Shown here: positions 8,539 through 58,600 of the stretch, piece after piece
How positions within the stretch are numbered: position 1 is the stretch's first letter
Layout: the number at the start of each line of letters is the position of its first letter
DNA from: Watersipora subatra
Lineage: Eukaryota; Bryozoa; Gymnolaemata; Cheilostomatida; Watersiporidae
Assembly (NCBI RefSeq): GCF_963576615.1
Contig: NC_088717.1
Coordinates: 14,576,108 to 14,640,107, forward strand
Length of the DNA stretch: 64,000 nucleotides
Direction: 5' to 3'
Notes under the pieces: generated by a model
Told to the model about the DNA's origin: nothing
Databases searched by the model: none
What the model saw: the letters and a program-made list of their open reading frames with translations, nothing else
Translations under genes and position numbers: made by a program

Positions 8539-8779
8539 TTAAGCAATGAATTCATATCGAATAGGCTCAACCATCTGCGGTGCATTGTTTTTGGCGCTGA
8601 CAAAATGTGCTGGCCTTGGTCCGACTGGCTGACGCTTCAAGTTAACCTGGCGACCTTCAGCTCTTGCTTGTGCCTTTTTCTCTTCGTTCTCTTTCATTCT
8701 CTTCAAAAAGTCCAGCCGACAGTTTGAATGCTTGACATGCTCAATTCTGAGATTGATTCGCTTAGGTAGAATTCGGCCT
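8539..8779 (-). CDS. RPL21: RPL21 last coding exon
   Basis: Acceptor TTTGTTTCAG/AGGCCG completes Arg81 and continues [18 protein letters not shown], then [16 protein letters not shown], ending EPIRYEFIA and TAA at 8541-8539. Confidence 0.97.
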
Positions 8780-22100: not shown

Positions 22101-25100
22101 TGATGACACAGTTGAGGTATGTTGCTCTTTAATTAAATGCAAAGATAACTTTAATTTTAATTTAGGTTGTGCTACAGAATTACATAAATGCATTTTTATT
22201 TGTGTAGTTGCTGTGCAGGTTCTATACATAGTGCTTGAGCCAAGTTAAAACCGCTTTTTGGAAACGGTCGACCGAAAGTTTAAAAATTTTTGTCAGGTTG
22301 TAAAACTAACAGCCATGTTGAGTTGACAAAAAAATGTTTGCTGGACTCTTATGGATTTGTTGGAGTTGTTTGCTCTTCATTGCTATACGGGTAGAGAAAC
22401 ATTCGACATCTGTTGTGAAAAGTACTCATGCATCTGTGTGGTTATACTGAATGATTTTAAAGCTTGGTGCTTGAGCAAAAACAACAAAATATTGGTCTAT
22501 TGTGTAGCTTGAAATGTGTACTATATTACAGTACTAGATGAATGCCCAGGCTTGCTCGAGTAATAAAAGTCTTTGTGCAAGAAACATATTTTTATTTAAC
22601 ATATAACAACAGTTACCATTCTAACTTTCAAACTTCATATCATGAGAAAATTGTTTTGTGCAGTTCAAATGAATTAAGAAAAAAAAACAATGAGTACATG
22701 GAAGTGTGTGTAAAAAAAGGTTACAGTTGCAGCAGAAGCTCGTTATACTCAAAGTTTTGATGGACGATACTGATACAAACGTAAAAATGAGATATCAGAT
22801 TTTCTTTGTCTGATACTTTGTCTGACCGAATGGAAAGAAAATGTAGAGGCAATTCCTACTCCAGATAACACAATCGTCCACGTAAAATGTATTTAGCTTT
22901 TACAGATTTTCTAAACCCGGAAAGATGAGTGTAATGGCACATTTGAAATTGAAACGGCACATTTGAAAATTACAAATTGAAAAAAATCGGTGATGGTAAA
23001 AAAGACTTAAAAAACTTTCTTAAGAAAAACAAACGCAAAAAGGTAATATGAATTAATAATAGAAAGTGCATGTTCAGCGTGTTTGCTATGGCAATAAGGA
23101 TAGATGAAGAGCTTAGAATGTTAAGAATGACTTAGCTTGTGGTTCTGCGTGTTTAGTAGTAGACCAATGGTTTGAATGCCTTATGTGTTCAAATCCAGTA
23201 CAAAGGTGATTTTTCGTTGCTGTAATTTGATCGCTATAACTGGACAGACAGACAAACACTGAGGTTTATATAATTATATATAGATGTGCGTTTTATATGC
23301 ATTTATTCGCACTCATTTAAAACTATAGTCATCGTCATGTTAGCTTCGAACATTTTTATCGCGACTAAATCGGGTTTCGACTAGAAAATTTGAAATTTTT
23401 GCACCTCAGATTTTGAACAAAAATTGGGCTTTCGACTGAATCGAAAGAAGAATAATTTTTTATGTCATATTTAGTAAAAACAGAAAACAAGAAATTTTTT
23501 TGGCATCTTTTTTATTTCTTACAATCTTTGCTAGGCTACTTTACTGTACTCTTCCATTAGAGTGCTTTTAGATCATACTCTTATAGTGCGTTAGTCTTCG
23601 CTTTTTTATGTTTATATATATATCTATATATCTATATTTAATGTTTATCTTAAAATTGGTAAAAATACAACATGCAAAATGTTGATGTTTTTTCATGCTT
23701 TTTGATAGGAAATCATTTGTTAAAATAAAACACGCAGTATTTCTGCACTTTTTATTTATGGTATACTGTAGACAAGACTCTGAGTAAACCAGGCTGGGGT
23801 ACGAGTTGCTACTGATACAGCTCTACAGTCATAGACCTATTAACTATACTAGTATAGTTAAGTTACTAGTTACTAGTTTAGTTACCCTAATTGGTCTATG
23901 ACTGTCTACAGTACACTCCTCAATCTAGTCTATCAATAGGTTTCTTATTAGACAGTCACTGTATTTTGCGTATTACCTGTTGTTGTATTACATCTATTTA
24001 CAGATCATAAATTGGCCTTAAAATAGTTGTTTTCTAGACATGGAACTTTGTAGCAAAACTGCTCAGATTTAGAACAAATCGCTTTTCGAGCAGCCTTCTG
24101 GAACAGGTTATGGTCAAAAGCTGAAGCTTAGCTGTAAATGCAAGCAAGCTTTATACAGTTACATGTATTTGCCACTCGCACTAACCAGTTGTACAATCAT
24201 GAACACGCATTTCATCATCAACCACGTATCACACAGGTGCTCCCAGCTCATACGATGTATTGAATGTTAAACTAATAATGTAGATTTAGTAGCATGGGTA
24301 TTCCAGAAAAAATAATTGCTTGCAATCCTCATGTGTTATTCTAGGCTATCATTCTTTCCCATTATTCTTGCTATCAGCAGTGTGTGGAACTAGACAACGA
24401 CAAGTTGGAGTTGTCTTTCTTTTCAATCAAAAACTTCTCACCCCTTATTACAATTTTCACTTCTCTCTTTTTTTTTGAATTTTTTGTTTCTGTGAACAAA
24501 AATTGAATTTTTCTGTATAGTTTACCAGACTATGTCATCTGTCTTTCCTAGTTGTACACTTTATCTACATACATGCCTCGCATAGTGTGTGTCAAATGTT
24601 GGTTGATGTATGCGCACCCATGAACCAACATTTGATAAGTGAACACTCTTTTGATCTAGTAAGTATGCTGTCTGATTCCTTGTGCTGAGACAAGTTAAAA
24701 CCTCTTCGCACTTTTCAACAAAGTCTTTCTAATTTTTGGATGTTCAATTGAATTTTGCTACACTTTCAAGAGTTCTTATGCTTGATATGAGAAACTGACA
24801 GCATGCGTTGTTCATTCAGAAAAAGATTTCTTTGGCGGTTATATTAAGATATAAATTTACCTTTTGGATACAAGCATGTAGCTCAGGCATTGGTTTTGTA
24901 CATAGTCAATTTTACATCACCATTCCTAGAGTGGCTCTGTCATGTTAGTATCTTGCTACAACAATCGCTTGTTTCTATCATTAGCCAATAGGATGAGAGC
25001 TACTGTAAATACCAATACATGTCCTCGTTCTGTTAGTGCCCATAAAACTTCTGGTTACCGACTATAGCCAGACTTGGCACAGCTGCAAGTCCCACAAATT

Positions 25101-35348: not shown

Positions 35349-35465
35349 TCAAGTCTTCAATAGATTGCTTGCTACTATTGCACCGAGGAAGATAAGTCCA
35401 AGATTTCTGTTAGATTTAAACTTTTTGAGACAGTCATCTGCATCATTCAAGTTTACAGAATAGAT
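35349..35465 (-). CDS. COQ2: COQ2 last exon
   Basis: Acceptor AATCTTTCTTGCAG. Encodes [20 protein letters not shown] then [18 protein letters not shown] and TGA at 35351-35349. It matches the family's ...[20 protein letters not shown]. Confidence 0.96.
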   Translation of the reverse strand: MYSVNLNDADDCLKKFKSNRNLGLIFLGAIVASNLLKT

Positions 35466-38400
35466 CTGCAAGAAAGATTACTAAAGTATAACAGAAACAA
35501 CAAAAGCGTTCTAACATTAATTGGTAAAAATTCTTCCCATGGTTACTTCTGTTCTTAACTTGTATATGTGTGAGCAATAGCCCGAATACCATGAGTGCTG
35601 CCTGCTTAGCAGGAACTGTACATGTTTTTAAGAGTACTTTTGCACAAACAATGTTTATGATATTGACTGAACATGTCGGAGTCCGAGAGAACCTCGATGA
35701 CTGGAGATACGCCTAGTTATATCAATGATATACAGCCCCCCAAGGGTAGCCGACGGCTCTCATATGGGCGGGGTTTAATGATGGAGCTCTGTTAGGATTG
35801 TGTATTAGGATTAGGGGGCTGTATATCATTGGTTATATAGAGCAATTAAAAGTTGAATGTCCTTCCTGCCACCACCAGTTGCCTTTTTTTAGGAACTGAA
35901 CCCCAACCTGTGGTTTGCAGGTCAGGAGTTTTAGACCATTAGGTGATAGCTGATCAACTTACAAGGAATTCCCTCCCTCCCCCCCCCCCTCAACCCTTCC
36001 CCCCCCCCCCCCCCCGCCATTTATGAGTTGACATACAAAGTCAACTCATAAACTAAAACCTTCATATCTTAGAGCAAATACTTGGATATTCAGAAATAAC
36101 TCTCTGCTTACCAGATACTCTGATACTGTAGTTCATCACACACAGTGTCAAAACAAACATTATATACAACTATGAGAAGAAATAACTATAAAAAACTAAA
36201 TTATTAAAGTAATGATCAATGAGAGTTTATTATCACTTTTAGCTTAAGAGATGAGTGTTGGCTGTAGGTACGCAGGTAGAGGTAGTTATAGAGACATGCT
36301 GTATAACTTACTATAATAAAGACTAGGTGAATAAACTAACTTACCATGATACTTTTTATCATTTATACAATATTCTGGATTAATTATCACAAGCCTCTTC
36401 TCGTTCAATGACAAAAATGCAACACTTCAAAAAACTGCAAACGTTCATATGTATAGAGGCAAATACTTGCTGGAATTTTGTACCACATGTTGGAAAATTA
36501 GTATGCCGAGGTGACTATATGCACATATCAGTCGTTCCATTTAGTAAATGAGCCATGGTTGACATATCTAAGCACAAACCAACACAGCGCATTACTTAAA
36601 AAAATACTTTGAAAAACTTTAGTTCAACAAAAGCAAAGGCAAACTGCTAGCACATTCATATTCAAACACAGCGATGGCATATGACCTCCATATGACCTTA
36701 GGAGGCGTGACTGACTGCAATATTCATTTGACCATAGGAGGTGTGACTGACTGCAATATTCATAAGCGATTCTCCCCTAGACTTTCCTTCAATCATTTAC
36801 CACTAGTCTTGTATAGAGAAATCACCTTAGCATGTAATCATTAGTTACCTGATGTGACAGGTGGGTTATGACCCCAACGACCCCCAGATAATACGGCCAA
36901 GTCTGATTAGAATAGATGCCTGTCATGATGAGCCCAGGGATCATGGCAGCTGTGAAACCGCTCAGCCAAAGCTTGCTGTTTTCCCCAAATCGCAGTGCTG
37001 TCGACTTCACACCTACTTTAACATCATCTTCCTTGTCCTGAGTAATAGCAAAACTACATCTTACATGTGATGAAGTTCATATATGAAATATATTAACTTT
37101 ATTTGACATAAAATATGTACATGATATATAATTAATATATAAATATATATTATAGGCTATAGGTATTGACATATAATATATATATATATCATATACATAT
37201 ATAATATATAAATATATATTATATACGAGTTAACATATAATATATATCAATATTTATCCACTAAAATGACCAACATAAAAACAAAACCAGTTTGTTTATC
37301 AAAAAAGAAGTCTGCGGTGAGCGACTAAATATCTCTGGCCATTGGCTAATCTATGTGACATTCATACAAGATCACACTGGTCACCTCTGGCAGCTATACA
37401 GAACAGCATGGATTGTCACTCGAGTACTACGGGTATAATAGCGGTTTGCAAGCCGTTGCAAAAATCAGAGGGCTACTACATCCACAACTACATGTCACAA
37501 TACTGATTGCACACACATGCTGGTATATACCTTCTGAAAAGGTCACTTTGAAAGAAACAGACACTAAGAAAACACCAGTAGCAGCTGTAACAAACCTTCA
37601 AATAAATGGTATGCTAAATGTAGCCGCCCACTCATGTCTTTGATCATTTGTTAGAGATTACACTATTTATCTAGCCAATGAGCCAAACCAATCACTCTAC
37701 ACAACATTGCAAAGAAACTAGCCAAAATATATGTATATATAGATGTATATGGATTCAAGTTGGCAGATTCCACCCATGACAAGCATAGCTAGCCAAGCGT
37801 ATATTATATATTTCTTAGCAAGCATTTCATTAAAATGCAGGTCATTAATGATAATCAAAGCAACAGTATGACTTGAGACAACGATGCTCTATTAGCATAC
37901 CACTCAGAGGAAAAGGAGTAGCCAGAATTTTGGATATTATACACTTATACTGAATAATGTAACAGGTCCAGTTTTGGCATTTTTTGAATCAAGGTTGAAG
38001 TTTCATTGAAATGCTTCATTTTAAGCTTAATGAGACTAGCAGAGGCAATAAGAGGTCAAGGATTTCTAGGAAAGAACATTGTTAGAGAGCAAACTGTATG
38101 TTGTATGGTAGAACACGGCTAAATCAAATATCTATTTATCTATGGAGTTCGATATAGCTGCGGTTCGCTCTAGTGAATGTCTGCATATTCAAATGATATC
38201 GGCACTTGTTTAAAACTATAATCTATCTATGCATGTGCTTGCGATAGCTTTAGTATACTGTATTAAACATAATAGATGAGGTTGTCATTGAACTGTCTCC
38301 TTATTCATTAGGTATTGGCTACAATTTTTGGCTCTTAGGCGGACGTGGTGCAACGTTGAGGTTTCACATGAAAACCTATTTTAACATCAATCAACCAATC

Positions 38401-41400: not shown

Positions 41401-44400
41401 CTGAAGAACATACTAAAGAAAACGTATTTTCTTTAGTATAGTAAAACATGCATAGGTCCACTACACTAATGTTGATGCGCAAGGCCCGTAAGTTTTCCTA
41501 TTACCACTGCATTCAGACCGCATTCAGTATAAACTAGCCTAAAACCTGGTTTCCATATATGCCGCAAGCACCGGCGACAGCACCGCAAGCTATCAGCGGT
41601 GAAATGTGAACCAATGCGCCGGGTGCAGGCGCTTTTAAATTTCGCGAAGAGCCGCAGGCAAAACCTTCCCAAAAGGCGCTGTACAGGTGAAGGTCAGCCT
41701 TATCAAAAGGGCATGGCAAGCAAACATTTTTATGTGATTATTGGCAATGCAGTTTTATGTGAACAGAAGCCGCCGAGCCTAGCGTCGCAAGTGTTTTGCT
41801 GCACAAGATTACCGCCGGGGTCTCACAATCGATATGGAAACCAGGCTTTGGACTATCTATCAGCAGCTATTTTAGAACAGTGTAGAAACTTCCTCTTATG
41901 TTTCCAAGAAGCGAAGCTGTCAACTGTACAGTTGACAGCTTTATGAGAGAATATACGTGTATACCAAATTACAACACAAATCAAAGACAGAATCACAGAA
42001 AGAAGCAGGAAGAGCCTCGCGATGAAAAAGTGTAAACTGGCATTGAAGACATAGAAACATCTGAAGAGGACATGGAAACATTCTAGAGAGGACAGAAGAC
42101 ATGGAAACATCCTAGAGAGAACGGTGGACATAGAAACATCCTAGAAAAAACAGAGGACATAGAAACATCCTAGAGAGGACTTGGCAGAGAAAAGACAGCT
42201 AGCCTGATTGTACTAATGACGAACATGAGGTCTACAGGAAGCCAGGAAGTGCTCTGAGCATAATAAGAAAAGGGAGTAGCAATTGTTGCTTGTTAGCCTA
42301 AAAAAGTTAAGATAGGAAGTCTGGGAGTCTAGCGAGGAAAGGACTAATCAGCTTGCGGAGCCCGTATGATGAGTCAGCAACCAACACCATTGTTTAAAGT
42401 CAGAGAGATCTTCAGACGAAGACTTGAATAGAAACGGTATTAATCAGAATTGAGTGGCAGAGTGTATGAGCTGGACTGCCATGCAAGCTAGCCAAGAAGT
42501 TTACCTGATGTGAATAGATTGTATCAAATATCATTGTCCATAATACAGCCGAAACGTAAAGTGGTAGCACTTCTGGCCAATCACAATAGCCATTCACTGC
42601 GGAGCTGCCCAGCAGCACGCCATAGTTAAGGGTTATGCCTAAACAAAGACCATTGCTCGGTTACATTGGGTGAAGATTCTCAAGTGGTTTTTTAGAGGTA
42701 CAAAAGGAGTTGCCCTACCCATACATGCCAACAAAAATGTCAATAATTTGAGTCTTTCCCAGTTCCTCCGCCACATTAGGTGCTGCATTGATCACATGCG
42801 CACAGTGAATTTAGGACAACACCGGACAATTTCAGATTCACCAAGACAAAGGGCAGAGCAGTCAAATCCTCGGTATTCTTTAAAAGAATCATATGAAGTA
42901 GATCGGACTGTACATTCAGGTGGTCCTCTGGTGTATACGCGGTATGACAAAGAATTTCAGCTACTATTCGTGTGGCAGAGTGGTCATCTGACTATTAGAC
43001 CAAGACTACTACCGACGCAGGTAACAAGTAGTAGGCAGGTACTTCGAGTAGTAACCATGAGAAGAGCTTGTCAGTATGAACTTGTCAGTAGGAGTTACAG
43101 CTATGACCACACAAGAGATGACGGTAATTTGATACATACTTTTCTTAATGCATAAACAATCTTGAAAATAAATTATTGAAAGGGAACATTGTGATTATTT
43201 TTGAGCTAGTTAAATATGCAAAAAATATATTCTTGACCAAAAATACTTAAATAATTCAGGCAGCCTTAGTAAGCGCACACTGCAGTTATATATACATGTA
43301 TACAGTAGACGCTCCTACAACGTATACCTAGTATATAATGTTACATTTTATTGCTGATCATAACCATTAAATACACTAAATACAATAAAGTTACTGTAGG
43401 TAACTATAGAGAACTAAGATTGACATACTGTTTTATCACTAATTTTGAATATGCACTGCACTTTTATGAAACTTTAACAATTGTTACCAGGGGATGTTTG
43501 CATTATGTAATTACAATGGTTTCTATACCCCTACATACAATTTTTTCACCATACGATGCCAACCTTGGAACGAATCAAAATCGTATCCTGAGAATGCAAT
43601 GTATATATAATTTTATATACATGTATGCTATACCTATATATATATCTCAAAATTTGTGTGTCCTTCGGTTTGTCCGGCTGTAGCTATAAAATATTAGAAT
43701 GAAAAATCCGTACCGCAAAGGATTTAATCCTGGAACCTCCCACTCACCAAACAAATTCCTTACCAATTAAGCTACGTGAGATTGATGGATTCATTGGGCG
43801 ACATATGTCACTATGCAGGTTAAAATAAGTCATCACTGTCTGTTACAGCGCAATTTAATTTTATGCTTGCTCTCACGGCTTTTATTAGTAAGTTTACTAG
43901 GTTGCTCAAATTAGTCTTTGGCAATGTGCCAGGCTAATGGCAGGCAACTACATTAACTGTCACTGTTTATAAGCCGATTTTTAATTACCTGTGCAACGCC
44001 GGGCTTTCTGTCAGTATAGATATATAGTACTGAATGACCGGCGTTGTCCGAGTAATAAAAGTCTTTGCACAGAAAAAATTTTTTATTTAACGTATAGCAA
44101 CGGTTACTATTCAACTTTCAAACTTCGTATCATGAGAAAAGTGTTTTGTACAGTTTAAATAAATTAGGCGAATAAATAAAACAACTGTAAAGGTTTCAAA
44201 CTTTGTCAAGCAACCGAAACTTTTAGACTTCATATCATCAGGGAAATTTTTTGTGCAGGTCAAATAAATTAAGAAACAAAATAAAACAACTATAAAAGTG
44301 TTTAAATGTAAATGTGAAACAATTAGCAAGTAATAACTAAATTAAGTTTTTTGCTATGATTACAATAAAAGATGATTTGGTAATGACACAATTAATACGA

Positions 44401-47400
44401 GCTAAGAGCACAAAATAAAAATCGTGAATAAATTGAATTAATAATAGAAGTACATAGAAGTGTATGTATAAAAAAGATTACTGTTCCAGCAAAAGTTATC
44501 CAACAAAACTTTGAATACGACGATACTGGTATCTCTCGATACTGGTACAAATGTAAAAAGGAGATATCGGACTGTCTTTGTCTGACCTAACAGAAAGCGA
44601 ATGTAGAGGCTATTCCTACTCGAGATAGTACTATTGTCTGCATGAAAAGCCTTGACCGGCTTTTGCAATTATGTGAGCTTTTAATTCCAAAATTTTAATA
44701 GATATAACCGGACATACCTAAGGTCATATCTAAGGTCATACACACACATGACAAACTTTGAGATTTATATATAGATATATATCTTATAATATAAAATAAA
44801 TAAATACTTAGCTTTATGTCAATTCACTACAAATTCATTTCAAACACCTAAAGAGTGCCTTTTGTACAAAATTCTTTTTAGATAGCGACAGAGGTAGCAT
44901 AGCACTGCCAGAGGTAGCGCTGTCAGAGGTAGCGCTGTCAAAGGTAGCGCTGTCAGAGGTAGCGCTGTCAGAAGTAGCGCTGTCAGAGGTAGCGCTGTCA
45001 GAGGTAGTGATGGCAGAAGGAATGCTGTCAGAGGTAGCACTGACAGAGGTAGCACTGACAGAGACAATGCTGTCAGAGGAAGCGCTGTCAGAGGCAGCGC
45101 TGACAGAGGCAATGCTGTTAGAGGTAGCACTGACAGAGGCAATGCTGTCAGAGGTAGCGCCGACAGAGGCAATGCTGTCAGAGGTAATGCTGTCAAAGGT
45201 AGCGCTGTCAGAGGTAATGCTGTCAGAGGTAGTGCTGTCAGAGGTAGTAATGCAATGAAACCAGAGTTTTGGTAACTTGTTCAAGTATACCTTGCAAACA
45301 GGCCAAAGAGGTAGCGGTAAGGTGCCAAATTGGATTATCTACCTATATCCCGTTTAGTCATTATGTGCATGCGTCTCTGTTGGTGAGTTCACATAAAAGC
45401 CATGAATTTCCCTTTTTTGGCCGATTGCATCCAAACTGCACACGCATATGATCCGTGTCTTATGCAAAGTCTTTAAAACAGTTTGGTTTCAAAACTCCAT
45501 CTGGTCACAGAGAACCAGCCTCCTAAACACTCACTAGTGGGCTATCACCGCGCATACTGCTAATTAACTATACGACAAAGTACCTGATGGGCGTAAATAG
45601 TGTCATATGCAAGGGTCCACATAATACTTGACATGTATAGGGGTAGAACAACTCCCAAGTCTATAGAATTATTTACTGCAGTCCAGCCTAATATAGCTCC
45701 CCAATTGAATGTTAAACCTATAATCATAAAAACACCAACAATCGCCTTGCACAAGCATAAATACATCCACAGAATAAACATAACAAAATTTGAGAAACAC
45801 CTCAAAACAAGGCCAACTGTATAACTGCAATAAACCAGGAAATGTGATGGTAAAATTTTTTTATTTTCCAACAGTCTTAAATATTTACTGCAGGCCAATT
45901 ATTTCTGGAATAACCCATTGATCTCTATATCTCAAACTCCCTAAATATCTATAGTAAAACATTGATCTCTGCAGTAGTCAGTCAAAAATGCTTCCATGAT
46001 TGCGTAATAAACTGCCCGCAACTAGATTAGGATGCATATCTTTCAGCTTAAAGCTACATGTATTATGCAACCAAAACCCAATATACAAGGTTCATTCGTT
46101 TCAAGATCGCATGTTGGCTCAAAAATTCCAAAAAAAGAATCTCCCGTAGTTCATTAAATTCGCTGCAATACCCAAAATTTACATAATAGATACTGCAGGA
46201 AATTATACAGAATGTATAAAACAATTAAATTAGTCAAACAACCAATAGAAGACACTATCATGGTTAGTTTCAACTCACAGAGGTAGATACACTCGGATGT
46301 GCTGTACATACACAGCACAACTCAAACTAACTTCAACACAATTAGCTTAAACTAACTTTGCTTTTATATTTTTTGCTATTTATAGGGTTTTTACAAACTT
46401 TTCCTTACAAAATAGCGATGCTTTGAGGATCTGTGAAAGTTGTCTGTAGAAAATTACTTCAGACAGGTAAAATACTCGCTCTAATGTTACATATTTGCAG
46501 GAAAATTCGTATGCTGAGGTGATGATAAATATAGCTTCGATGGTATCATACTAAGCCAACCAAAAACAAGACAGTTTTATTGTTTGCTATCACACTGCCT
46601 AAATAACATCTTTTGAGAAACAGCTGTATAGAAAGCCTCTAAGTGCAGACAAATCCCATTGAATAGTTTCTATAAAAATTAACCATGATACCCTTGCAGC
46701 AAGGACTGTTAGATTGAAAGAACAAACCTAATGCTATCTGTGGCCAGTAGGTTACTCTTTTGAAGAGAGGGTAAGAAACCACAAAGGCAAGAGAACTCGC
46801 TCCTACCACAATGCTACAAAAGAAAAGAGATATTTTTTCAACTTCCAGATGATACGCTGGCTGTAGATTGTCTTGTCATAGGCTAAGGCTCTGCAACAGA
46901 AGTATCTGTTAGCAAGAGTGCCGCATCAGATGTTCTTACTACAGCCAACAAAGTCAGACCTCAACATACAATGCTAATCCCCGCCGACATATTCTTTGTA
47001 TCTCAAAATTAATGTATTTTAGAGCAAAAATTCTGATACAAATACACTGTATTTCGCTTACTTTGTTGCACAGCTCAAGAACTTGATGACAATCACTTCA
47101 AGTAAATATACACGTATTTAACATGAAAACCAATGCACTATATAGAACTTCATAAAAACTCAATGTAATAAATTTTAAGTAAGAAATAATAAACCAATAA
47201 TCAACAAAAGAAAGATTTTATTGTCGCTCATCGGGTGAACGAATGCGTAATCTTGGCAAGACAGGAAGTGGAAGGCGAGTAGGTAAGGTTGGATGAGTGA
47301 TGAATGATGAGAGAGATACTAAGTTAGTTGGCCTTGAATGCATGTATGTGAGCCATAAATTAACATAACTTATTTTTGTACCTAATATTTTTATTTTTAT

Positions 47401-50400
47401 CTTTAATTATTAAGTCCAACTTTCACATTTTCATTCATTTCAGACTTTTTGTTCTTACATCACCTTCACTTCCTCATGACAAAAACTAACTAGACAACTT
47501 AGTTAATATACTGTAAATGTAATTTGAATACTATTGAACAAAAATATGCTAAGGGTTTCAACAAGATCCTCCTCGTGTTCTTTAATAAGTAAAATAATGA
47601 ACATTTGTCAGCAAGCAAAAACAACACCAAGTAAGTCAGGTGTAAGTGAAAAAACAGAGCAACACAACTTCGTAACAAAATTCATATTCTAATAAAGGTC
47701 CATTCGCAACTCTATAATGATTTGTACAGACTTACAAAACTGCCAGTTTTAGGATTCTGCAAACGCCACATGTCGGAAATAATGTTGGAAATAGATTAAT
47801 TCCATCTGTAGGTTTAGACGATCTAATGCTGAGTGGAACCAAATTTAACAAAAGACCAAAACACTAGTTACCTACATATCTTGCACAACGTTTACATGTG
47901 GAATGTCAAATGTTACGAAAACAATTCATATAGAGAAACCTGTGTCAATATATTTAAAATACATGTGATGACATAAAGATAGATAATATTGCAGTCCGAC
48001 CTTGATCTAAAATCATCTTAACATACAATTTTTACGATGCAGAATGTAAAACCTAAACAAATCTTTGAGGTGACATTCTAAGTAATTTCAAACATACGGC
48101 ATACAAAGTTTTGAAAATCAGTATATACATGTAGGTACGTATGCAGTATATACATGTAGGTACGTATGCAGTATATACATGTAGGTACGTATGCAGTATA
48201 TACATGTAGGTACGTATGCAGTATATACATGTAGGTACGTATGCAGTATATACATGTAGGTACGTATGCAGTATATACATGTAGGTACGTATGCAGTATA
48301 TACATGTAGGTACGTATGCAGTTGACTTTTACATATTTGGTTCTAGAATGCTCCGCTAAAAAGGGCTTTATACCTTCCATAATAGTTTTGCAATCATGCA
48401 TACCAAGGAGAGTACTGCGAGTGGTAGTAGCGGTGAAGAAGGAAGAACATGCTTACCATAGAATTAAAATACTGTGATAAATATCAAATACAAAAATATA
48501 TAAACAAGTTATGCTAAGTTCACGTAATCTAGGTTTGACTAACTCTATCTCTACTGTTTCCTGTAAGGCTAAAATTATACCTTCGTTATCCTGTCATTAA
48601 CATAATGAAAAAGCGACAACAAAAATCTCTTGCTATTTGATATTACTCTATAAGTTTAGTTGTTTACAGAATATTACAATTACATTTGGGTTTTTCATAT
48701 GCCTTTATATAATAGACTACTATTATTTTATATGTTACATATAACTACTTGAAATATCACCAAGTTTTTAAACTATGAAATGAAATCAACAAACTTTTAC
48801 TCAAAAGTTATGGTTTTGGAGCATGAAGAAAATGTCATAACAGTTGAACTTCCTAATGTACAGGTTTGACCTACTATGAATGTACGTATATAGTTATCAT
48901 GCTTGCTTATTGATTTCAAAGTCACTGAACTGACAAGTACAATAACTCAAATGACTAAAACAACTCAAGTGACTAACACTACAACTCAAGTGACTAACAC
49001 AACAACTCACATGACTAACACTACCACTCAAATGACTAACACTACAACTCAAATGACTAAAACATCTCAAATGACTAACACAACAACTCAAATGACTAAC
49101 GCTACAACTCAAATGACTAACAATACAACTCAAACGACTAACACTACCACTCAAGTGACTAACACTACAACTCAAATGACTAACACTACAACTCAAATGA
49201 CTAACACTACTATTCAAATGACTAAAACATCTCAAATGACTAACACAACAACTCAAATGACTAACGCTACAACTCAAATGACTAACAATACAATTCAAAT
49301 GACTAACATTATGACTCAAGTGACTAATACTACAACTCAAGTTACTAACACTACAACTCAAATGACTAACACTACAACTCAAATGACTAACAATACAACT
49401 GAAATGACTAACACTACAACTCAAGTGACTAATACTACAACTCAAGTGACTAACACTACAACTCAAATGACTAACACTACCATCTTTGCACCACTAGTAT
49501 AATTGATTTGTTCAGTTTTAATATCAGTGGTTTCTACTAGAATAATTTATCCCATGCAGAAAAAACAGTTAGTTGCCTATATTAGCAATGTTCTTTTCAA
49601 TAGTGTAGTCATAGACATATTAACTATACTAGACTGGGCAATGCAAGGCCACAGTGTCCTACTAATAGTTAATAGGTGTCCTACTAATGTCCTGTTAATA
49701 GTTAATAGGTCTATGAGTGTAGTAGCCGAGTATCACTAGCAAATTAACAAGACTAGTAAACTTGGGTCACATTGGTTGCTATTCACACAAAAAATGATAG
49801 GTAACTGAAACCTCTGAGTGGACATTGGTATGAAAGACTCATGATACAAAGGGCGATGTTCGCTTAGCTAAACTTTACTTTAGCTTTACCATTGTGGCAA
49901 GTGAGTCACGCCTTGGCAAATGAAACCTGTAAGACTTACCCGTAAATATGGAACCTCTAGGACTTACCTGTAAATGGGTAACCTGTAGGACTTACCTGTA
50001 AATGGGTAGCCTGTAGGACTTACCTGTGAAAATTAAGCTGAAGCAGACAAGCCAAACCCGCAGTGAGCTGCAAGGCTAGATATGTCCATGCTTGGCTTAT
50101 ATGTACTTCTCCACTGGCCAGTGGACGAGACTTCGTCCTTGCCACCTGTAACAAAATAATTCTATGAAATTACAGTGTATTCTAGTCCAAAATTATCAGT
50201 TAGTAAAAATATGGAGATACAAAAAGTCAATCAGGAAATAGAAGCTTTCCGAGTCACTTAGAAAAGCATCTGACTAGTTATCATAAAGGTGTAACTAGTT
50301 GATATACATTTGTGTACATAACAGTTTTATATTAGAGAGCCAGCCCTTTTAAGCCTGGGCCTCTAATAATATAAGGAGTTGTTTTCCCATCAAATTCTTT

Positions 50401-53400
50401 GCCTGAGAAAACAACACCTCATAGCTTCGCTATGCATTCGCCTACTTACAGTTTAAGTAGTAATCTTGTTTGTTTTGTGCTTGAGACCTTCTCAGTATAA
50501 TTCTGAAGGTGCAAGTTCATTAAACTACTAGTTCATAAGATATCACCGAACTACTGAGGGTATTTCAAACAGACCTAAAAATGAAAAATGGCCGCTAACA
50601 GGGGATTAGTTTTTATTAACACGCTAGTTGAAATCTTTGATGATGAAAGCTGAGAGCCAGACTCAAATAGTGATCCAGGTAGGTGGTTGTAGTTCCAACA
50701 TTCACACTAGGTTAGAGCCTACTGCTGTTGCTACTGTACACTGAGAAAATCATTGTACAGTGCACCCTCAGGATACGATTTCGATCCGTTCCAGGGTTGG
50801 CATCGTATGGTGAAAAAATCGTATGTAGGAGTATAGAAACCATAGTAATTATATAATGTAACCACCCCTAATAAAAGTCTTTAAAATGTTATAAGTGCTG
50901 TACATATTCAAACCTACGGGTAGTAACAAAATAGTATGTTAACCTTAGTAACTATAGCTACCAATAGTAATTTTATTGTATTTAATGGTTGTGATCTGCA
51001 ATAAAATGTAACATTATAATGCAGGGAGTTCTTACCTTCGAGACAAACCTATGTATAATATAAACTTTGAATTCACCCTAAATAAGTTTAGCTTACTAAA
51101 CACACACGCTTAAAGCCAAGTTTTAGCATTTTTTTTAAATATTTTAGTGAATTTCAACTGTTTATCACTAAAATTTTATTGTTCATCAGTTTCTGTTTTC
51201 GTTTCAACTACAACTTTCAGCAGACGTGTGTAAAACCTTTTTCAACGTAATTCGACAAGACAACCCAAACGATGCTGTTTTTGTGGTGAAGTGGATTTTT
51301 GTTAGCAGGTTAAGAGAAGTTGTCTGACCACTGATTTCTTTGAAGAAATCACAACTCCAACTTTGCTACTGGTTTAAAAACAAAATAGTGAGAATTGCTG
51401 AATGAGAATTGCTGAACTTAGAGAAAGCGGTCAATGTGTCTTTTCCAAGCATTGTGAAAATGTTTTCGATGAATAGCATTTGGGCGTCTTTTTTATTTTG
51501 CATACGTAATAAGCACACCGACTGCCAAATTTGTACTCGAGTGAAAATTTTGTCGAATTCGTATGGTGAAATAAGATTTGTATGGTGAGGTGAAAAAAAT
51601 CATCATGTTCCACTTCGTAAGGTGTAAAAATAGTATATCAGGGTAATCGTACACTGAGGGCGCACTGTGTATGTATATATATATATGTACAAGTGTATAC
51701 AGTAGACGCTCCTACAATGTAAATAATCCGTTTCAGGAACGTTGAAGTTATATGGAATTTATGTAAGAAGAACAGTAAAACACATGTAAATTGCCTAATC
51801 TGTTCCAAGATCTTTTCAAACTCAACCCTTTGGCTATGCAAAAAGGGAAAACTTGGCTTACCTCTTCTAATTTGTGGGCTGTACCCTTACTGTACCATTA
51901 CCATGTTACTGCAACATTATTGGTTTATTGGTTTGCAACTTTTCTCCTTTTTCTGATCAATCTTACAGGTTTTATAGGCTATGGTTGCGGTAATTTTTAC
52001 AGTAATCAAGTTGATGGGGAGCAAACATCTTCGACGTTCATTAATGATGATTTGCTTAATTTTTTCTAAACAGCAAAGTCTATTCTGCAAAGTAAAATTA
52101 ATAACAAATATTTTATACCTCTACAATAAGGTAAAACAACAAAATATTTTTACTATAAAGAGTGGTTCTACCTGTTCGTCATCTATTTGTACCCATTGCT
52201 CAAGGCTAGGATAAAAGAGAACTTTTGACGATACTCCAACTCGTCACATTTACATGTAGATTGGTAAACCGACGCTGTAGCACCTACACCAATCGATCGC
52301 CTCTGTATTTATGAACAATTGCGCAGCAGCTGTTCTCTGTTTTGTTGACACATTTGACGACCTATCACGACGGACTAGGATGCTGCGAAAGTTGTATACA
52401 GTCATACTTCAACTTACGAGCTTAATGCGTTCCGGGACTGCGCTGGTATGCCGATTTACTCGCATGTTGGTGCAATTTATTTATATATAGAACAATTAAA
52501 TATATATTGATTGGTTTTCATACTCTGAGAAACAAACAAAAACACTTAAAACAAGATACTGTGACAAAAAAAACATGTTGGTAATTGTCCTAACTTACCA
52601 CATGCTTTCAAAAAGCAACAAATAAAAAATAATCCAAGAAAATGTGGTTAATTAAAATGTAAAATTAAATACATACATGTACAATCCTTTGTTTTGTCGT
52701 GACGTCATTTTATCGTTGTCGGCCATCTTTATAGACAATTTTATCGTTAAAAACACGAAGCTTTTGCAATGGTAATTTGAAAACGATGTTTTTGTTTGCT
52801 ATTTTTTATTATAGTATCAAAACAACATCTGAAAGTACTAGTAAATAAAAGAAAAACGATCGTCTTCTACCAATATGGCGGCTTTTTCGTGAATGAGCGC
52901 ATGTACAAACGACTTGATGGCTTAAAAAAACGATGGATAGCAGCTAACGCCAGTATTTGCCAAAGAAGGAGAGAAAGGTTATCCTTCATTACAACATTTG
53001 ACTTTGATAAATTTGGATTCTGATGCACAGACTTGAATGCAAACTTTTATTTTTAAACTTAACGTAATTAAAATTTTTTGGCGTTCATAGTTTTAAATTT
53101 CTTCTCATGGCTTATCTAATTTTTCCTTTGTTTCACTCTCACAATCAGCCGGTCGTTTTAAGAGAAACCTATCTAAGGACGTTTGCCTTTGTCGCCCTTT
53201 CAACATGTTGCGAAAAGGACGAACACAGATGTCGTCAAGGGCGAATGCACTACCACTAGCCAACTTGTCTAAATGTCTATGTTTATAGTCTTGATAGATA
53301 GTACCGGCCTTTACACATAGTATCGTTTCAGTGATGCTGTTGCCGGCTAATTGTTTGTCTTTTATCCAAAGCATGAGCAGTCTCTCCATCTCGACGTAAA

Positions 53401-55719
53401 GACCGCTATGCCGTTTGGAAACTATGGTTACTCCTTTTGCAGGCTTAATGCCCTTAATATTATCCTTCTGTTTGATAATTGTGAATATTGTGGATGTATT
53501 TCTGTCATATTGGCGAGCCATCTCAATCACACGTACACCTTTCTCATATTTTTTCAATAATTTCACGTTTAATTTCAATTCTTATCATTCGATCATTCGC
53601 TTATTCTTTGCATTATCCATTATTGTACCGGTTAACTTTCAGTCTATGCACAGTTCTTTTAATTCACATAATTCTACACTGAAAACGCGCACAAAAAACA
53701 CGATGCAAAAGTATAACCTGAGCAGTTAAAAAATACAGAGTGATGCTGTTCTCATGAAGACACATCCGACATACTTGGCCACTGACTCACGTGCTCGTAT
53801 CTCAAACATGGTTCGTATATTAGTGCTAAAACTTGCTCAAGAGCTGGCTCGTATCTCAAGTTTCTCGTATGTTGGGGCACTCGTAAGTTGAAGTATGACA
53901 GTATATAATAGGTATAGCTTTATACGAGCATCATTTTTCTCTCGCAAGTGTGATAAGATTGAGTAACATTCCAATCGAATTTGAGAACTTGCCTGACTTT
54001 AAACATTACGTTATATGGAATTTTTTACGTAGTAGGAAGCAGAAACTTCACCAAAATTCTTTGTTACTGAAATTTAGTGATAGAAACGTCCACTGTATAC
54101 ATATAGCTGTAGTGTGCACTTACTAAGGCTACCTGAATTATTTAAGTATTTTTGATCAATAATATATTTTTGATCATAGTTATTACACATGACCATATCT
54201 CACAGCACATTGGACTACCAGGGTACCAGTAAATATAATTATACACAAGATTTAAAGAGGCCACCACCTGTTTTTGGAATAAAAAATATCCTCCAAAACA
54301 GAAACAGTGTAAGTAAACTGAGTGGAACAACCAAGGCAGTGAGTGTATCAAAATACCTGAGAGTCAAAATCTCTATCCCACATATCATTAATGGTGCAGC
54401 CAGCACCTCGCATTATAATAGCTCCACAACCAAATAAGGAGAGGAGATAGAGATCTGGTAGGCAGCCAGGGGCAGCGGCAAGTGATATACTCCATGTGCA
54501 AGGAAGGTAGAGCAGCCAGGTGCCTACAGCAATATTAATATATAAGATACAACCATGGAAACCTTACTCCTCGAAACCTCGCTTACAAACTCCAGGTGTG
54601 AATAATTATGTATTCTTATCAGAAAACTAATAAACACTACGAAGCCATCCTAAAATATTTTGCGTGTAACAGCTTAAAATAGTGACTATTACTATTGTAG
54701 TAAAAGTATTATTATCATTATGATTATTAAAATATAATATGTACTCTTCACTATAATAAAAATCATGTCTGTTCGTCTGTACGGAGCAATGCTCAGAGTG
54801 TTAGGAAAAACACTTTCAACAAGATTCGAACTCATGACTTTCAGCTTAATAGACCAATACTGTAACACCTGCGCCAATCAACCATCTTGCTGTTTTTTTG
54901 GAATAATTGTACACCTAGTTATTACACTAGACAATCTCTTACGATGCGCCAGAGTGCCAGAATAGGTACCATTAAAATTATTATAATGGTGGTAATTGCA
55001 TGTGCCAATGTCACAGCATTGCATGAAAAGAAAAAACTGTTGGAACTGCACAGAAACATAATAGGTGTCCATGGCATTTGTATCATTTAAACTAGTTGAG
55101 GGGTTCACAGTTAGAAGTTACACATTTATCTTCAATTTAAGGCTGAATAAACACGTGTACAACAGTAAGTTTAGGTACAATATAGCAAAACTACAACAAA
55201 TTATGCATACTTGGTTTTTGCAAATTAGTCAAAAAATATTAAAGTAAATTTTAAAACTATCAATACATTGAATAACTGCTTTGATTAGAAACTTGTTCTG
55301 ACTAAGGCATAGTATTATTTCACCTCCAAGGTAAAATATAATTGAGTTCTTTTTACAAAGTCAAATCTTATGAAATCATTAAAAATAGCCTGACTTGGAC
55401 AGCGTTAAGCAGTGAAATGTACATCCACAAGCCTACCTATCGGCCGATCAAGTCGACTCAGCTGTAAGTATGGCTTTAGTGAAGGTGGAGACTTGTCTAT
55501 AAGGCTCTTTGCAGAAATGCTGGCCCTGTTGCCTAATGAAAGTTCTCGCACTTGAGTGTAGCTCCACAAGGTGAAGGATAAAGCAGGACAGGTACTTCTT
55601 AAAATTGCGACATTTGTCGATACAAGAGAGGGAGTGTTTAAAGAGAAGCAGGGTAGGCATGTGGTGCATACCACTTGCTTCTGCAGCAATTTAAATCCCA
55701 ACCTCCTGAATCCTGACAT
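35349..55719 (-). CDS. COQ2: 4-hydroxybenzoate polyprenyltransferase with mutually exclusive exons
   Basis: UbiA-type integral membrane enzyme of the mitochondrial inner membrane that joins the polyprenyl tail to the quinone ring precursor. Coding exons: 55719-55437, 54523-54357, 50145-50024, 46813-46728, then either 45717-45584 (form a) or 42638-42505 (form e), 37037-36849 and 35465-35349. Each form is 1098 nt, 365 residues plus TGA; human COQ2 is 371-421. The N-terminus ([15 protein letters not shown]) is basic and suits a mitochondrial presequence. The first aspartate motif is NDMWDRDFD (140-148) and the second is DTIYAHQDKEDD (258-269). The ATG follows an in-frame TAG. The gene spans 20 kb and its introns are full of satellites and transposons. 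It ends 0.8 kb upstream of the secreted-protein gene on the same strand. Confidence 0.97.
35722..35850. mobile_element. Short MITE with AATGATATACAGCCCCC ends
   Basis: Left TATATCAATGATATACAGCC and right GGGGGCTGTATATCATTGGT are inverted repeats about 120 bp apart, flanked by TATA-like sequence. It lies in COQ2 intron 6. Confidence 0.75.
35967..36016. repeat. Poly-C / poly-pyrimidine tract
   Basis: Two long cytosine runs (about 11 and 17) lie inside CCTCCC-type sequence. The minus strand is the sense strand of COQ2, so the intronic RNA carries G-runs that could form a quadruplex. Confidence 0.9.
36694..36765. repeat. 36-bp tandem duplication
   Basis: Two copies of GACC(T/A)TAGGAGG(C/T)GTGACT then GACTGCAATATTCAT, in COQ2 intron 6 about 85 bp past exon 6. 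Confidence 0.9.
36849..37037 (-). CDS. COQ2: COQ2 exon 6
   Basis: Acceptor GCTATTACTCAG. Encodes [20 protein letters not shown] to [13 protein letters not shown], completing the second Asp-rich motif. It is phase 0 at both ends, with donor GTAACT. Confidence 0.97.
37100..37255. repeat. AT-rich TATATA low-complexity stretch
   Basis: Runs of ATATATAA / TATATAAT with internal duplication (AATATATAAATATATATTAT occurs twice) in the intron between COQ2 exon 5e and exon 6. Confidence 0.85.
39948..40034. repeat. 11-bp tandem repeat, 8 copies
   Basis: ATATTACAGCT repeated with occasional ATATTACATCT variants. Confidence 0.92.
41540..41850. mobile_element. MITE with CCTGGTTTCCATAT ends
   Basis: Left AAAACCTGGTTTCCATAT and right ATATGGAAACCAGGCTTT are inverted repeats about 310 bp apart. 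The interior is richer in GC than its surroundings (GCCGCAAGCACCGGCGACAG, AAGGCGCTGTACAGG). Overlapping 60-115-aa open frames inside are not gene-like. Confidence 0.8.
42048..42180. repeat. Minisatellite based on GACATAGAAACATCCTAGAG
   Basis: Four to five imperfect units of about 28-33 bp containing GACAT(A/G)GAAACATCCTAGAG, some 325 bp past exon 5e in the transcribed direction. Confidence 0.85.
42505..42638 (-). CDS. COQ2: COQ2 exon 5e (rhodoquinone-type alternative exon)
   Basis: Acceptor GGTCTTTGTTTAG, donor CAG/GTAAAC, 134 nt, the same phases as exon 5a. Encodes [20 protein letters not shown] then [19 protein letters not shown] and TIYSHQ. It is identical to 5a at 23 of 44 full codons. 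Phe223 becomes Leu (TLNYG) and Ala262 becomes Ser (YSHQ). The exon has no stop and sound splice sites, so it does not look like a decayed copy. Confidence 0.95.
42670..43155 (+). other. 161-aa open frame opposite COQ2, doubtful
   Basis: The longest non-repetitive single open frame in the window (begins [17 protein letters not shown]; middle [20 protein letters not shown]). It lies antisense in the intron upstream of exon 5e. No domain, splice context or promoter is recognised and base composition is only slightly richer in GC than its flanks. It may be chance or repeat-derived. Confidence 0.2.
43300..43601 (-). mobile_element. Fragment of the CAGTGCACCCTCA transposon family
   Basis: Read on the minus strand, GAATCGTATGG-type sequence at 43487-43601 (AATCGTATGGTG equivalent, GGTTGGCATCGTATGGTGAA) and AATGGTTATGATCAGCAATA near 43350 match the left part of the element at 50758. 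A CAGTAGACGCTCC end adjoins at about 43304. Confidence 0.6.
43690..44017 (-). repeat. tRNA-derived SINE-like unit
   Basis: The reverse complement contains GTAGCTTAATTGGTAAGGAA (A-box-like) and GGTTCCAGGATTAAATCC (B-box-like) in a tRNA-sized block at about 43716-43784. The flank GGCAATGTGCCAGGCTAATG recurs near 59030-59290, and GCCGGGCTTTC introduces the adjoining repeat. Confidence 0.55.
44018..44790 (+). repeat. Interspersed repeat, copy 2 (homologous to 22527-23290)
   Basis: TGAATGACCGGCGTTGTCCG then AGTAATAAAAGTCTTTG, CAACTTTCAAACTTCGTATC, GAGGCTATTCCTACTCGAGA and a TTTATATATAGATATAT end follow the same order as the USP46-intron copy. The internal piece near 44165-44290 is itself duplicated. 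It lies in the intron between exons 5a and 5e. Confidence 0.75.
44895..45256. repeat. 15-bp minisatellite, about 24 copies
   Basis: The unit GTCAGAGGTAGCGCT, with ACAGAGGCAATGCT variants, lies in the COQ2 intron between exons 5a and 5e. Because 15 is a multiple of three, both strands show long open frames (Ser-Asp-Ala or Ala-Leu-Pro-Leu-Thr repeats) that are artefacts of the array. Confidence 0.95.
45584..45717 (-). CDS. COQ2: COQ2 exon 5a (ubiquinone-type)
   Basis: Acceptor TTTTTATGATTATAG, donor CAG/GTACTT, 134 nt. Encodes [17 protein letters not shown], then [20 protein letters not shown] and Q. It is close to the ordinary animal COQ2 sequence ([12 protein letters not shown]...YDTIYAHQ) and keeps Phe223 and Ala262. 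Confidence 0.96.
45718..46727. other. COQ2 intron 4
   Basis: One kilobase of AT-rich sequence between exon 4 and exon 5a. Nothing else is recognised. The open frame at 45560-45898 is exon 5a read through its acceptor. Confidence 0.7.
46728..46813 (-). CDS. COQ2: COQ2 exon 4
   Basis: Acceptor TTTTCTTTTGTAG. Encodes [20 protein letters not shown] then VTYWPQIAL, and ends in phase 1 at G/GTTTGT. It matches YPLMKRISYWPQLALG of the family. Confidence 0.96.
48121..48320. repeat. Perfect 25-bp tandem repeat, exactly 8 copies
   Basis: GTATATACATGTAGGTACGT plus ATGCA is repeated eight times without a single substitution (200 bp). It encodes open Tyr/Cys/Ile/Thr-rich frames on the minus strand that are not genes. 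Confidence 0.98.
48936..49485. repeat. 21-bp minisatellite, about 26 copies
   Basis: The unit ACTCAAATGACTAACACTAC plus A is seven codons long, so a 199-aa Thr/Gln/Met/Asn frame on the plus strand and a 189-aa Ser/His/Leu/Cys frame on the minus strand both stay open. It lies inside COQ2 intron 3. Confidence 0.95.
49606..49724. mobile_element. Small palindromic MITE
   Basis: AGTCATAGACATATTAACTA on the left and GTTAATAGGTCTATGAGTGT on the right, with an internal duplication of GTCCTACTAATAGTTAATAG. It is related to 23824-23906. Confidence 0.7.
49922..50026. repeat. 28-bp tandem repeat, 4 copies, spanning the COQ2 exon 3 donor
   Basis: On the minus strand CAGGTAAGTCCTACAGGCTA plus CCCATTTA repeats. 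The first copy contains the real donor AG/GTAAGT. The next three reproduce GTAAGTCCTA or GTAAGTCTTA at 28-bp steps. Confidence 0.92.
50024..50145 (-). CDS. COQ2: COQ2 exon 3
   Basis: Acceptor ATTTTGTTACAG. Encodes [20 protein letters not shown] then [20 protein letters not shown]. The donor AG/GTAAGT is the first of four 28-bp tandem copies. Confidence 0.95.
50758..51667. mobile_element. MITE with CAGTGCACCCTCAG ends
   Basis: Left CAGTGCACCCTCAGGATACG and minus-strand right CAGTGCGCCCTCAGTGTACG are inverted repeats 910 bp apart. Subterminal ATCGTATGGTG motifs recur at both ends. There is no transposase. It lies in COQ2 intron 2. Confidence 0.82.
52399..53901 (-). mobile_element. Pogo/Tigger-like DNA transposon, internally deleted
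   Basis: Left CAGTCATACTTCAACTTACG and minus-strand right CTGTCATACTTCAACTTACG differ at one base and are flanked by TA on both sides, the target-site duplication of Tc1/mariner/pogo elements. The element is 1503 bp and contains a shortened transposase frame. Confidence 0.85.
53105..53578 (-). pseudogene. Tigger-like transposase missing its catalytic domain
   Basis: A 157-aa frame. Residues 1-50 ([39 protein letters not shown]) form a psq-like helix-turn-helix, and residues about 60-100 ([19 protein letters not shown]) are the start of a CENP-B-type HTH. After about residue 105 the frame jumps to a C-terminal tail ending [13 protein letters not shown], typical of Tigger proteins. The DDE catalytic core is absent. 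The product could at most bind DNA. Confidence 0.75.
54357..54523 (-). CDS. COQ2: COQ2 exon 2 (first Asp-rich motif)
   Basis: Acceptor TTGCTGTAG. Encodes [19 protein letters not shown], then [19 protein letters not shown], and ends in phase 0 at GTATTT. Confidence 0.96.
54760..54890 (-). repeat. SINE-like fragment
   Basis: The reverse complement carries GTCATGAGTTCGAATCTTGT (B-box-like) and ATTGGTCTATTAAGCTGAAA. It lies in COQ2 intron 1. Confidence 0.5.
55437..55719 (-). CDS. COQ2: COQ2 exon 1
   Basis: Residues 1-94 plus one base: the presequence and then [16 protein letters not shown], matching the family's QPYLRLMRLDKPIG. Donor G/GTAGGC. CTTTAGTTACAG nine bases before the ATG could be an acceptor for a 5' noncoding exon. 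Confidence 0.93.
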
Positions 55720-58169: not shown

Positions 58170-58600
58170 TCATTAGTATGTGTCAAAGTCCGGCGTGATG
58201 GCTATTATGATGTCCAAGTAGAGCAATAGTGTCCCCCAATGTATGCCATGCAGTACAAGTTTCATTAGTCTCTGGAAAATGGCTGGTGTGAAACGTGAGT
58301 CCGAATGGCAAAACCTTCCACTCCCAATCGATCTCTCCTGGGCATTGGCATCCAATGGCACCTGCCAGTAGCCACTGACCAGATCCAGCTCGCTAAAGAA
58401 CTTGCTGCTAGAGAGGGTGTCGAGGCTGTCATCGGTCAGGGAAGGGGGTAGGCATCCTGCTTTGGGACTGCAATCAGCCAACGGTAGTCGACACAGAACT
58501 GTCACTTCCCATCCTTCCTTTAGACCAGCGCTACCGGGAAACTCCAAGTGCCTCCAGTGTGCTCGATGAGCTTCTTGTCAAAGAGATCTAGCACCTGTCA
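58170..58600 (-). mobile_element. Degenerate Ty3/Gypsy reverse transcriptase fragment
   Basis: One frame gives WEFPGSAGLKEGW, then SKFFSELDLVSGYWQVPLDA and LHGIHWGTLLLYLDIIIA; another gives QFCVDYR. These are the palm-domain motifs of Gypsy-type reverse transcriptase (FSxLDLxSGYWQV, LLYLDDIIIA). The frame is broken by stops and shifts, and the second Asp of the YxDD motif is missing, so it is inactive. No LTRs were identified with confidence. Confidence 0.8.

What the first reader, a model, noticed from the sequence alone, without database searches (positions are those of the whole stretch)
42505..45717. COQ2 carries two alternative fifth exons, one with the rhodoquinone-type signature
Seen: exons 45717-45584 and 42638-42505 are both 134 nt, have the same phases and sound splice sites, and share 23 of 44 residues. 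The first is ordinary COQ2. The second has Phe to Leu (TFNWG to TLNYG) and Ala to Ser (YAHQ to YSHQ), 39 residues apart. Known: in C. elegans, coq-2a and coq-2e arise from such an exon pair. The e form is needed for rhodoquinone synthesis, and the e-type exon has been reported only in rhodoquinone-making animals, including some annelids and molluscs; the two substituted sites are, as I recall, Phe204/Ala243 in the worm. Inference: this animal makes rhodoquinone and can switch its quinone by splicing to live without oxygen.
Basis: partly seen in the sequence, partly recalled or inferred. Interest (0 to 1): 0.93.

Follow-up and report, generated by a model that had tools for sequence, protein, structure and literature searches.

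The report
Bryozoan COQ2 with rhodoquinone-type exon
A marine moss animal (bryozoan) carries, in its gene for making the respiratory electron carrier coenzyme Q, a second version of one exon that in worms, annelids and molluscs goes with making rhodoquinone for life without oxygen; if it is used, a further animal phylum would have this switch.

Summary
The window is chromosome 10 of the bryozoan Watersipora subatra. It holds a seven-coding-exon COQ2 gene on the minus strand with two alternative fifth exons of 134 nt (5a 45717-45584, 5e 42638-42505): same phases, GT-AG sites, 23 of 44 residues shared, and Phe-to-Leu and Ala-to-Ser at the two sites known from C. elegans COQ-2e. Either exon gives an open 365-residue protein; both or neither gives an early stop. 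No other candidate piece in the window matches 5a at more than 5 of 44. Leu/Ser occurs in 2 of 122 fetched COQ2 proteins, one a nemertean isoform, and in 0 of 79 parsed bacterial UbiA. The genome has TDO, kynureninase and an Ldh_2-type malate dehydrogenase; the KMO search did not complete. The mechanism is published for nematodes, flatworms, annelids and molluscs, so this is a new member of a known kind, in a phylum with no rhodoquinone paper in my search. That 5e is spliced in, or rhodoquinone made, is inferred. 5e also changes three almost invariant residues; a single ancient origin is favoured, not proven (81/84).

The parts
55437..55719 (-). COQ2 coding exon 1 (ATG at 55719, N terminus)
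   Evidence: open frame joined to exon 2 in phase 1; whole 5a isoform identical to P0001
54357..54523 (-). COQ2 exon 2 (first Asp-rich motif NDMWDRDFD)
   Evidence: tblastn and splice sites
50024..50145 (-). COQ2 exon 3
46728..46813 (-). COQ2 exon 4
45584..45717 (-). COQ2 exon 5a, ordinary (ubiquinone) type: Phe223, Ala262
   Evidence: 134 nt, GT-AG; in RefSeq isoform X1
42505..42638 (-). COQ2 exon 5e, rhodoquinone type: Leu223, Ser262; also Tyr225, Ser231, Phe257 in place of Trp, Trp, Tyr
   Evidence: 134 nt, GT-AG, open; 23/44 to 5a, 28/43 to the Lineus e exon
36849..37037 (-). COQ2 exon 6 (second Asp-rich motif DKEDD)
35349..35465 (-). COQ2 exon 7, ends at TGA
42480..42485 (-). TGCATG (RBFOX-type motif, function recalled) starting 20 nt downstream of the 5e donor; three more further down the same intron; none in the introns 4-5a and 5a-5e
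   Evidence: found after looking at six motifs in three introns, so a lead only
44890..45260 (-). 15-nt minisatellite in the 5a-5e intron (bounds approximate), about 0.34 kb downstream of the 5a donor; units carry CTCTGACAG (12 exact)
   Evidence: bearing on splicing unknown

Best explanation
The bryozoan COQ2 gene encodes two enzymes through a choice between exons 5a and 5e. With 5a the prenyltransferase attaches the polyprenyl tail to 4-hydroxybenzoate and feeds ubiquinone synthesis. With 5e, core helices of the enzyme are exchanged, Leu and Ser replace Phe and Ala near the aromatic substrate, and the enzyme accepts 3-hydroxyanthranilate from the kynurenine pathway, leading to rhodoquinone, which lets complex II run backwards as fumarate reductase when oxygen is short. 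Shown here: the gene, the two exons, open frames, splice sites, the frame penalty for including both or neither, the Leu/Ser pair, TDO and kynureninase genes in the genome. Inferred from worm genetics: substrate change and rhodoquinone. Not shown: transcription of 5e, KMO, rhodoquinone, response to oxygen.
For: Exon pair with equal length, phase and sites and far above chance. 5a+5e stops at codon 266, skipping both at codon 224. Constraint: differences by codon position 16/11/29; 15 of 23 shared-residue codons differ synonymously. Leu/Ser in 2 of 122 fetched COQ2 proteins (118 Phe/Ala, 2 Ile/Ala) and in 0 of 79 parsed bacterial UbiA of 80 loci (one of the six search patterns contained the Ala, so that sample is biased towards it). 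Bryozoan, Lineus and P0121 e exons also share I1, V7, M35; among the 120 other fetched animal rows these occur 0, 0 and 4 times, among 79 bacterial rows 1, 3 and 0. Kynurenine pathway: TDO, four exon matches, two over the cut-off; kynureninase, seven exon matches, none over the whole-protein cut-off, but three pieces put together match PDB kynureninase at E 2.6e-57, cysteine desulfurase at best 3.9e-7. A type-2 (Ldh_2) malate dehydrogenase is present; PMC8659336 (passage) reports an archaeal-like malate dehydrogenase in all rhodoquinone makers and no mammalian host; that this is the Ldh_2 family is recalled. The Lineus e-form is itself a RefSeq isoform X2. In the worm the two substitutions suffice for survival that needs rhodoquinone (PMC8659336 section 12).
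Against: No RNA or quinone data. 5e differs from the other two e exons at residues 225 (Tyr), 231 (Ser) and 257 (Phe), held as Trp, Trp, Tyr by 120, 119 and 120 of 120 other animal rows, so its activity cannot be taken over unchanged. Aeropyrum UbiA, solved with 4-hydroxybenzoate bound, aligns with Leu and Ser at these two sites, so the pair does not by itself exclude 4-hydroxybenzoate. The TDO 'PLD' marker is present but PDB entry 4hka also has it, so it does not discriminate. KMO was not tested. The tree does not reject 5e as a sister of its own 5a (p-AU 0.38).
Confidence: 0.72

Rival explanations
1. 5e is an ancient e exon on its way out: still open, but rarely spliced in or with a damaged pocket, and the animal no longer makes rhodoquinone.
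For: Three further changes at almost invariant aromatic positions; W. subatra is a shallow-water animal taken from marinas. The Alvinella paper reports siboglinids that keep the e exon although much of the kynurenine pathway is lost (passages).
Against: Frame, both splice sites and length intact; second codon positions most conserved; TDO and kynureninase kept.
Confidence: 0.13
2. 5e arose in the bryozoan line by a separate duplication of 5a and reached Leu/Ser by convergence (compatible with a working rhodoquinone switch).
For: The tree in which 5e and 5a of the window are sisters is not rejected (p-AU 0.38); in print mrp-1 is an example of independently arisen exon pairs (PMC7434440 section 9 read).
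Against: 5e is further from its own 5a (23/44) than from the Lineus e exon (28/43) or 15 other a-type animal exons (24 to 29 of 44); three extra shared residues; without the two diagnostic columns the three e exons still group, 65/79 and 81/84, below the tool's mark for a firm branch.
Confidence: 0.2
3. 5e makes a COQ2 isoform with another acceptor or a tissue-specific ubiquinone role, not rhodoquinone.
For: Extra substitutions near the pocket; Leu and Ser also stand in Aeropyrum UbiA.
Against: The same two changes suffice in the worm and the three e exons seen here share them.
Confidence: 0.1

Closest known systems
C. elegans coq-2 exons 6a/6e (COQ-2a / COQ-2e), PMC7434440
   Same: Two 134-nt exons, 39 residues between the diagnostic sites, Phe/Ala versus Leu/Ser
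   Different: Another phylum; fifth rather than sixth exon; three further changes near the pocket; no splicing or quinone data yet. The worm e exon sequence itself was not available to me as text
Lineus longissimus (Nemertea) COQ2 isoform X2 (P0122)
   Same: Leu/Ser plus I1, V7, M35
   Different: One residue shorter in the matching stretch (its gene was not seen); keeps both Trp and the Tyr that the bryozoan changed
Annelid COQ2 a/e exons (Alvinella, siboglinids), PMC12403961
   Same: Tandem a and e exons in one gene (passages)
Aeropyrum pernix UbiA (PDB 4od4/4od5)
   Different: Archaeal, 21% identical in that alignment of structures, no exon choice

Membership tests
COQ2 / UbiA 4-hydroxybenzoate polyprenyltransferase | Scores above the curated family cut-off | tested here: met
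   P0001 (= the 5a isoform) 378.6 bits against TIGR01474 cut-off 275.45; the Lineus and P0121 e-forms 375.8 and 358.5. The bryozoan e isoform itself was not scanned
COQ2 / UbiA 4-hydroxybenzoate polyprenyltransferase | Two Asp-rich motifs (recalled) | tested here: met
   NDMWDRDFD and DKEDD, both in shared exons
COQ-2a/COQ-2e mutually exclusive exon pair | Two homologous exons of equal length and phase in one gene | tested here: met
   134 and 134 nt, same phases
COQ-2a/COQ-2e mutually exclusive exon pair | e exon with Leu and Ser where ordinary COQ2 has Phe and Ala | tested here: met
COQ-2a/COQ-2e mutually exclusive exon pair | Inclusion of both or neither is unproductive | tested here: met
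   Stops at codons 266 and 224
COQ-2a/COQ-2e mutually exclusive exon pair | Both isoforms seen in RNA | not testable with these tools
   No reads held; RefSeq names the a-form 'isoform X1', which suggests at least one more, not seen
COQ-2a/COQ-2e mutually exclusive exon pair | e exons form one clade (common origin) | tested here: inconclusive
   Grouped 65/79 and 81/84 without the diagnostic columns; alternative not rejected, p-AU 0.38
Animal rhodoquinone synthesis | Kynurenine pathway to 3-hydroxyanthranilate: TDO and KYNU | tested here: met
   TDO on C8, KYNU on C1
Animal rhodoquinone synthesis | KMO | not tested
   Search requested ten times, never answered
Animal rhodoquinone synthesis | Rhodoquinone present in tissue | not testable with these tools
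   Needs LC-MS

The most novel reading that the evidence does not exclude
The bryozoan 5e isoform, with Trp225Tyr, Trp231Ser and Tyr257Phe on top of the Leu/Ser pair, has moved its acceptor specificity beyond that of the worm enzyme and makes a quinone precursor other than, or in addition to, that of rhodoquinone.
Probability: 0.07. Interest if true: 0.75.

Novelty: new member of a known kind. Interest (0 to 1): 0.5.

Why it matters
Rhodoquinone-type COQ2 splicing in animals was reported from nematodes, flatworms, molluscs and annelids, and whether rhodoquinone synthesis is ancestral or arose several times is stated as open in PMC7434440 (section 9 read). A bryozoan e exon, with a nemertean one beside it, adds two phyla for which my searches of the paper library found no rhodoquinone paper, and gives new rows for the exon tree that can decide the question. 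It also predicts anaerobic respiration in a sessile, invasive fouling animal, testable with public RNA-seq and LC-MS.

Tried and rejected
Clusters are made at 90% identity, and the a- and e-forms of this species are 94% identical, so e isoforms may be hidden in a-form clusters; absence from the lists means little. A viral-contig scan with P0121 gave no relative.

TDO 'PLD' loop as a rhodoquinone marker: the bryozoan has TPLDF, but PDB 4hka (insect, recalled) has it too, while 8qv7 and 8r5q (human, recalled) have TALDF; rejected as evidence.

Exon tree as proof of common origin: too few columns; grouping not firm. One search used 19 of 33 rows (14 bacterial rows of 43 letters dropped); one search used 28 rows: the window's two, the two other e exons, 11 animal and 13 bacterial ones that I chose. 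Alignments A1 and A2 hold 33 of 122 proteins. The 122 proteins are the 120 listed best hits (of 3403; capped list) plus P0121 and P0122; the named ones are nearly all vertebrates and many are unnamed, so this is no broad invertebrate sample. The 80 bacterial loci are a capped list too.

Intronic pairing as the cause of mutual exclusion: many of the inverted repeats in the 9.7 kb around the exons are AT-rich simple sequence; not pursued. U2/U12 incompatibility and steric hindrance: the sites are GT-AG (no U12 scan was run) and the introns are 1010, 2945 and 5467 nt, which speaks against both; the frame penalty is the only exclusion mechanism shown.

Window ORFs against Pfam: 10 hand-picked ORFs of 124 of at least 70 residues. 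AOX and ETFDH were planned and not searched. The model of the 5a isoform was not searched against structures.
Full report
What is there. The window lies on contig C10, 14576108-14640107, of a 783.7 Mb genome. The assembled ordinary isoform is identical to RefSeq COQ2 'isoform X1 [Watersipora subatra]' on a 61,084,640-base contig; the genome paper PMC12902671 (passages seen) gives 783.70 Mb and a chromosome 10 of 61.08 Mb. W. subatra is a cheilostome bryozoan. The COQ2 coding sequence runs from the ATG at 55719 to the TGA ending at 35349 on the minus strand in seven exons. A whole-genome search for the UbiA family gave seven matches at three places, on C9, C3 and C10, of which C10 is this gene; what the other two are was not pursued.

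The exon pair. Exons 5a and 5e are both 134 nt with the same phases and GT-AG sites; 23 of 44 residues and 77 of 134 bases agree. Each gives an open protein of 365 residues; including both stops the frame at codon 266, skipping both at codon 224. A mechanical control found 27 pieces per strand of the window that are open, 134 nt, in phase and between AG and GT; apart from 5a itself and 5e none agrees with 5a at more than 5 of 44 residues. Between 5a and 5e the differences fall 16/11/29 on codon positions 1/2/3, and 15 of the 23 codons for shared residues differ synonymously, as expected if both exons have been kept as protein for a long time.

The signature. Phe223 becomes Leu and Ala262 becomes Ser, 39 residues apart, as Phe204/Ala243 in C. 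elegans (PMC7434440, section 6 read). Of 122 fetched COQ2 proteins 118 have Phe/Ala, 2 Ile/Ala and 2 Leu/Ser. Of 80 alphaproteobacterial loci, a capped list found in part with a pattern that contains the Ala, 79 could be parsed and all 79 have Phe/Ala; L031 was not parsed. The two Leu/Ser proteins are P0122, RefSeq COQ2 isoform X2 of the ribbon worm Lineus longissimus, and P0121, a JGI protein of unnamed origin. The three e exons also share Ile1, Val7 and Met35 of the exon, which occur in 0, 0 and 4 of the 120 other animal rows and in 1, 3 and 0 of 79 bacterial rows. A tree without the two diagnostic columns groups the e exons with support 65/79 (19 rows) or, with bacterial rows, 81/84 (28 rows); a tree with bryozoan 5a and 5e as sisters is not rejected (p-AU 0.38 in both). 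So a common origin of e exons is favoured, not shown.

The pathway. In the worm, TDO, AMFD, KMO and KYNU supply 3-hydroxyanthranilate (PMC8659336 section 9 read). The bryozoan genome has TDO: four exon matches on C8, two over the family cut-off, with further exons read out. Kynureninase: seven matches on the minus strand of C1, none over the whole-protein cut-off, six of them in collinear order and the seventh weak and overlapping; the same search also gave sub-cut-off matches in control genomes, so I read out three pieces and compared them with the PDB: three kynureninase chains at E 2.6e-57 to 4.5e-56, a fourth (1qz9) at 1.2e-19, cysteine desulfurase at best 3.9e-7. KMO was requested ten times and never answered. 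PMC8659336 (passage seen) reports an archaeal-like malate dehydrogenase in all rhodoquinone-making animals and in no mammalian host; that this is the Ldh_2 family is recalled. An Ldh_2 gene in five exon matches, two over the cut-off, lies on C4, and its best piece matches PDB malate dehydrogenases 1v9n and 3i0p. How common this gene is in animals without rhodoquinone was not tested. The TDO active-site proline that the same paper links to rhodoquinone users is present but also stands in PDB 4hka, so I give it no weight.

How it most likely works. A choice between 5a and 5e swaps core helices of COQ2 and turns it from 4-hydroxybenzoate to 3-hydroxyanthranilate; productive mRNA needs exactly one of the two. 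The worm evidence is strong: deleting exon 6e leaves essentially no detectable rhodoquinone (PMC7434440, passage), and F204L;A243S in COQ-2a restores recovery from cyanide (PMC8659336 section 12 read). For the bryozoan every functional step is inference. A TGCATG motif (RBFOX site, recalled) lies 20 nt downstream of the 5e donor, with three more in that intron, about 1.7 expected from the window's own rate; it was found after looking at six motifs in three introns and is only a lead for how 5e is chosen.

Known or new. The mechanism is published; the papers seen name nematodes, flatworms, annelids and molluscs. Searches for rhodoquinone with bryozoa, nemertea and brachiopod returned 0, 0 and 1 paper, the last being the Alvinella paper; in a search for rhodoquinone or Watersipora, which lists papers with both first, no paper with both appeared. 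The library holds open-licence papers only, so a report elsewhere is possible. I therefore file it as a new member of a known kind: the first e exon I know of in Bryozoa, with a nemertean one found on the way. RefSeq may already hold it as an unremarked isoform of the Watersipora gene, since the a-form is named X1.

Noticed in passing
window 44890-45260: 15-nt minisatellite in the 5a-5e intron whose units carry CTCTGACAG, a branchpoint-plus-acceptor-like string; 12 exact copies of it on the minus strand, no other in the window on either strand.
   Followed up: partly
window 42480-42485: TGCATG starting 20 nt downstream of the 5e donor; four in that intron, none in the introns 4-5a and 5a-5e.
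   Followed up: partly
window 16872-17204 and 21952-22245, plus strand: Exons of a ubiquitin carboxyl-terminal hydrolase (PF00443), USP12/46-like from memory.
   Followed up: no
window 8542-8802, minus strand: Exon resembling ribosomal protein L21e, weak score below cut-off.
   Followed up: no
window 53108-53581 and 58176-58577, minus strand: Weak, sub-cut-off matches to a Tc5 transposase DNA-binding domain and a reverse transcriptase, probably transposon remains.
   Followed up: no
window 48894-49499: Long minisatellite, read as a Thr/Asn-rich open frame, in the intron between COQ2 exons 3 and 4.
   Followed up: no
P0122, Lineus longissimus COQ2 isoform X2: A nemertean e-type stretch, one residue shorter than the bryozoan one; no rhodoquinone paper mentioning nemertea found.
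   Followed up: partly
G000:C4:37913321-37926620: Multi-exon type-2 (Ldh_2) malate dehydrogenase gene in the bryozoan genome.
   Followed up: partly
L092:8562-8618 (G000:C8): Bryozoan TDO has the TPLDF loop that PMC8659336 links to rhodoquinone users, but PDB 4hka (insect, recalled) has it too, so the marker may be wider than that.
   Followed up: yes
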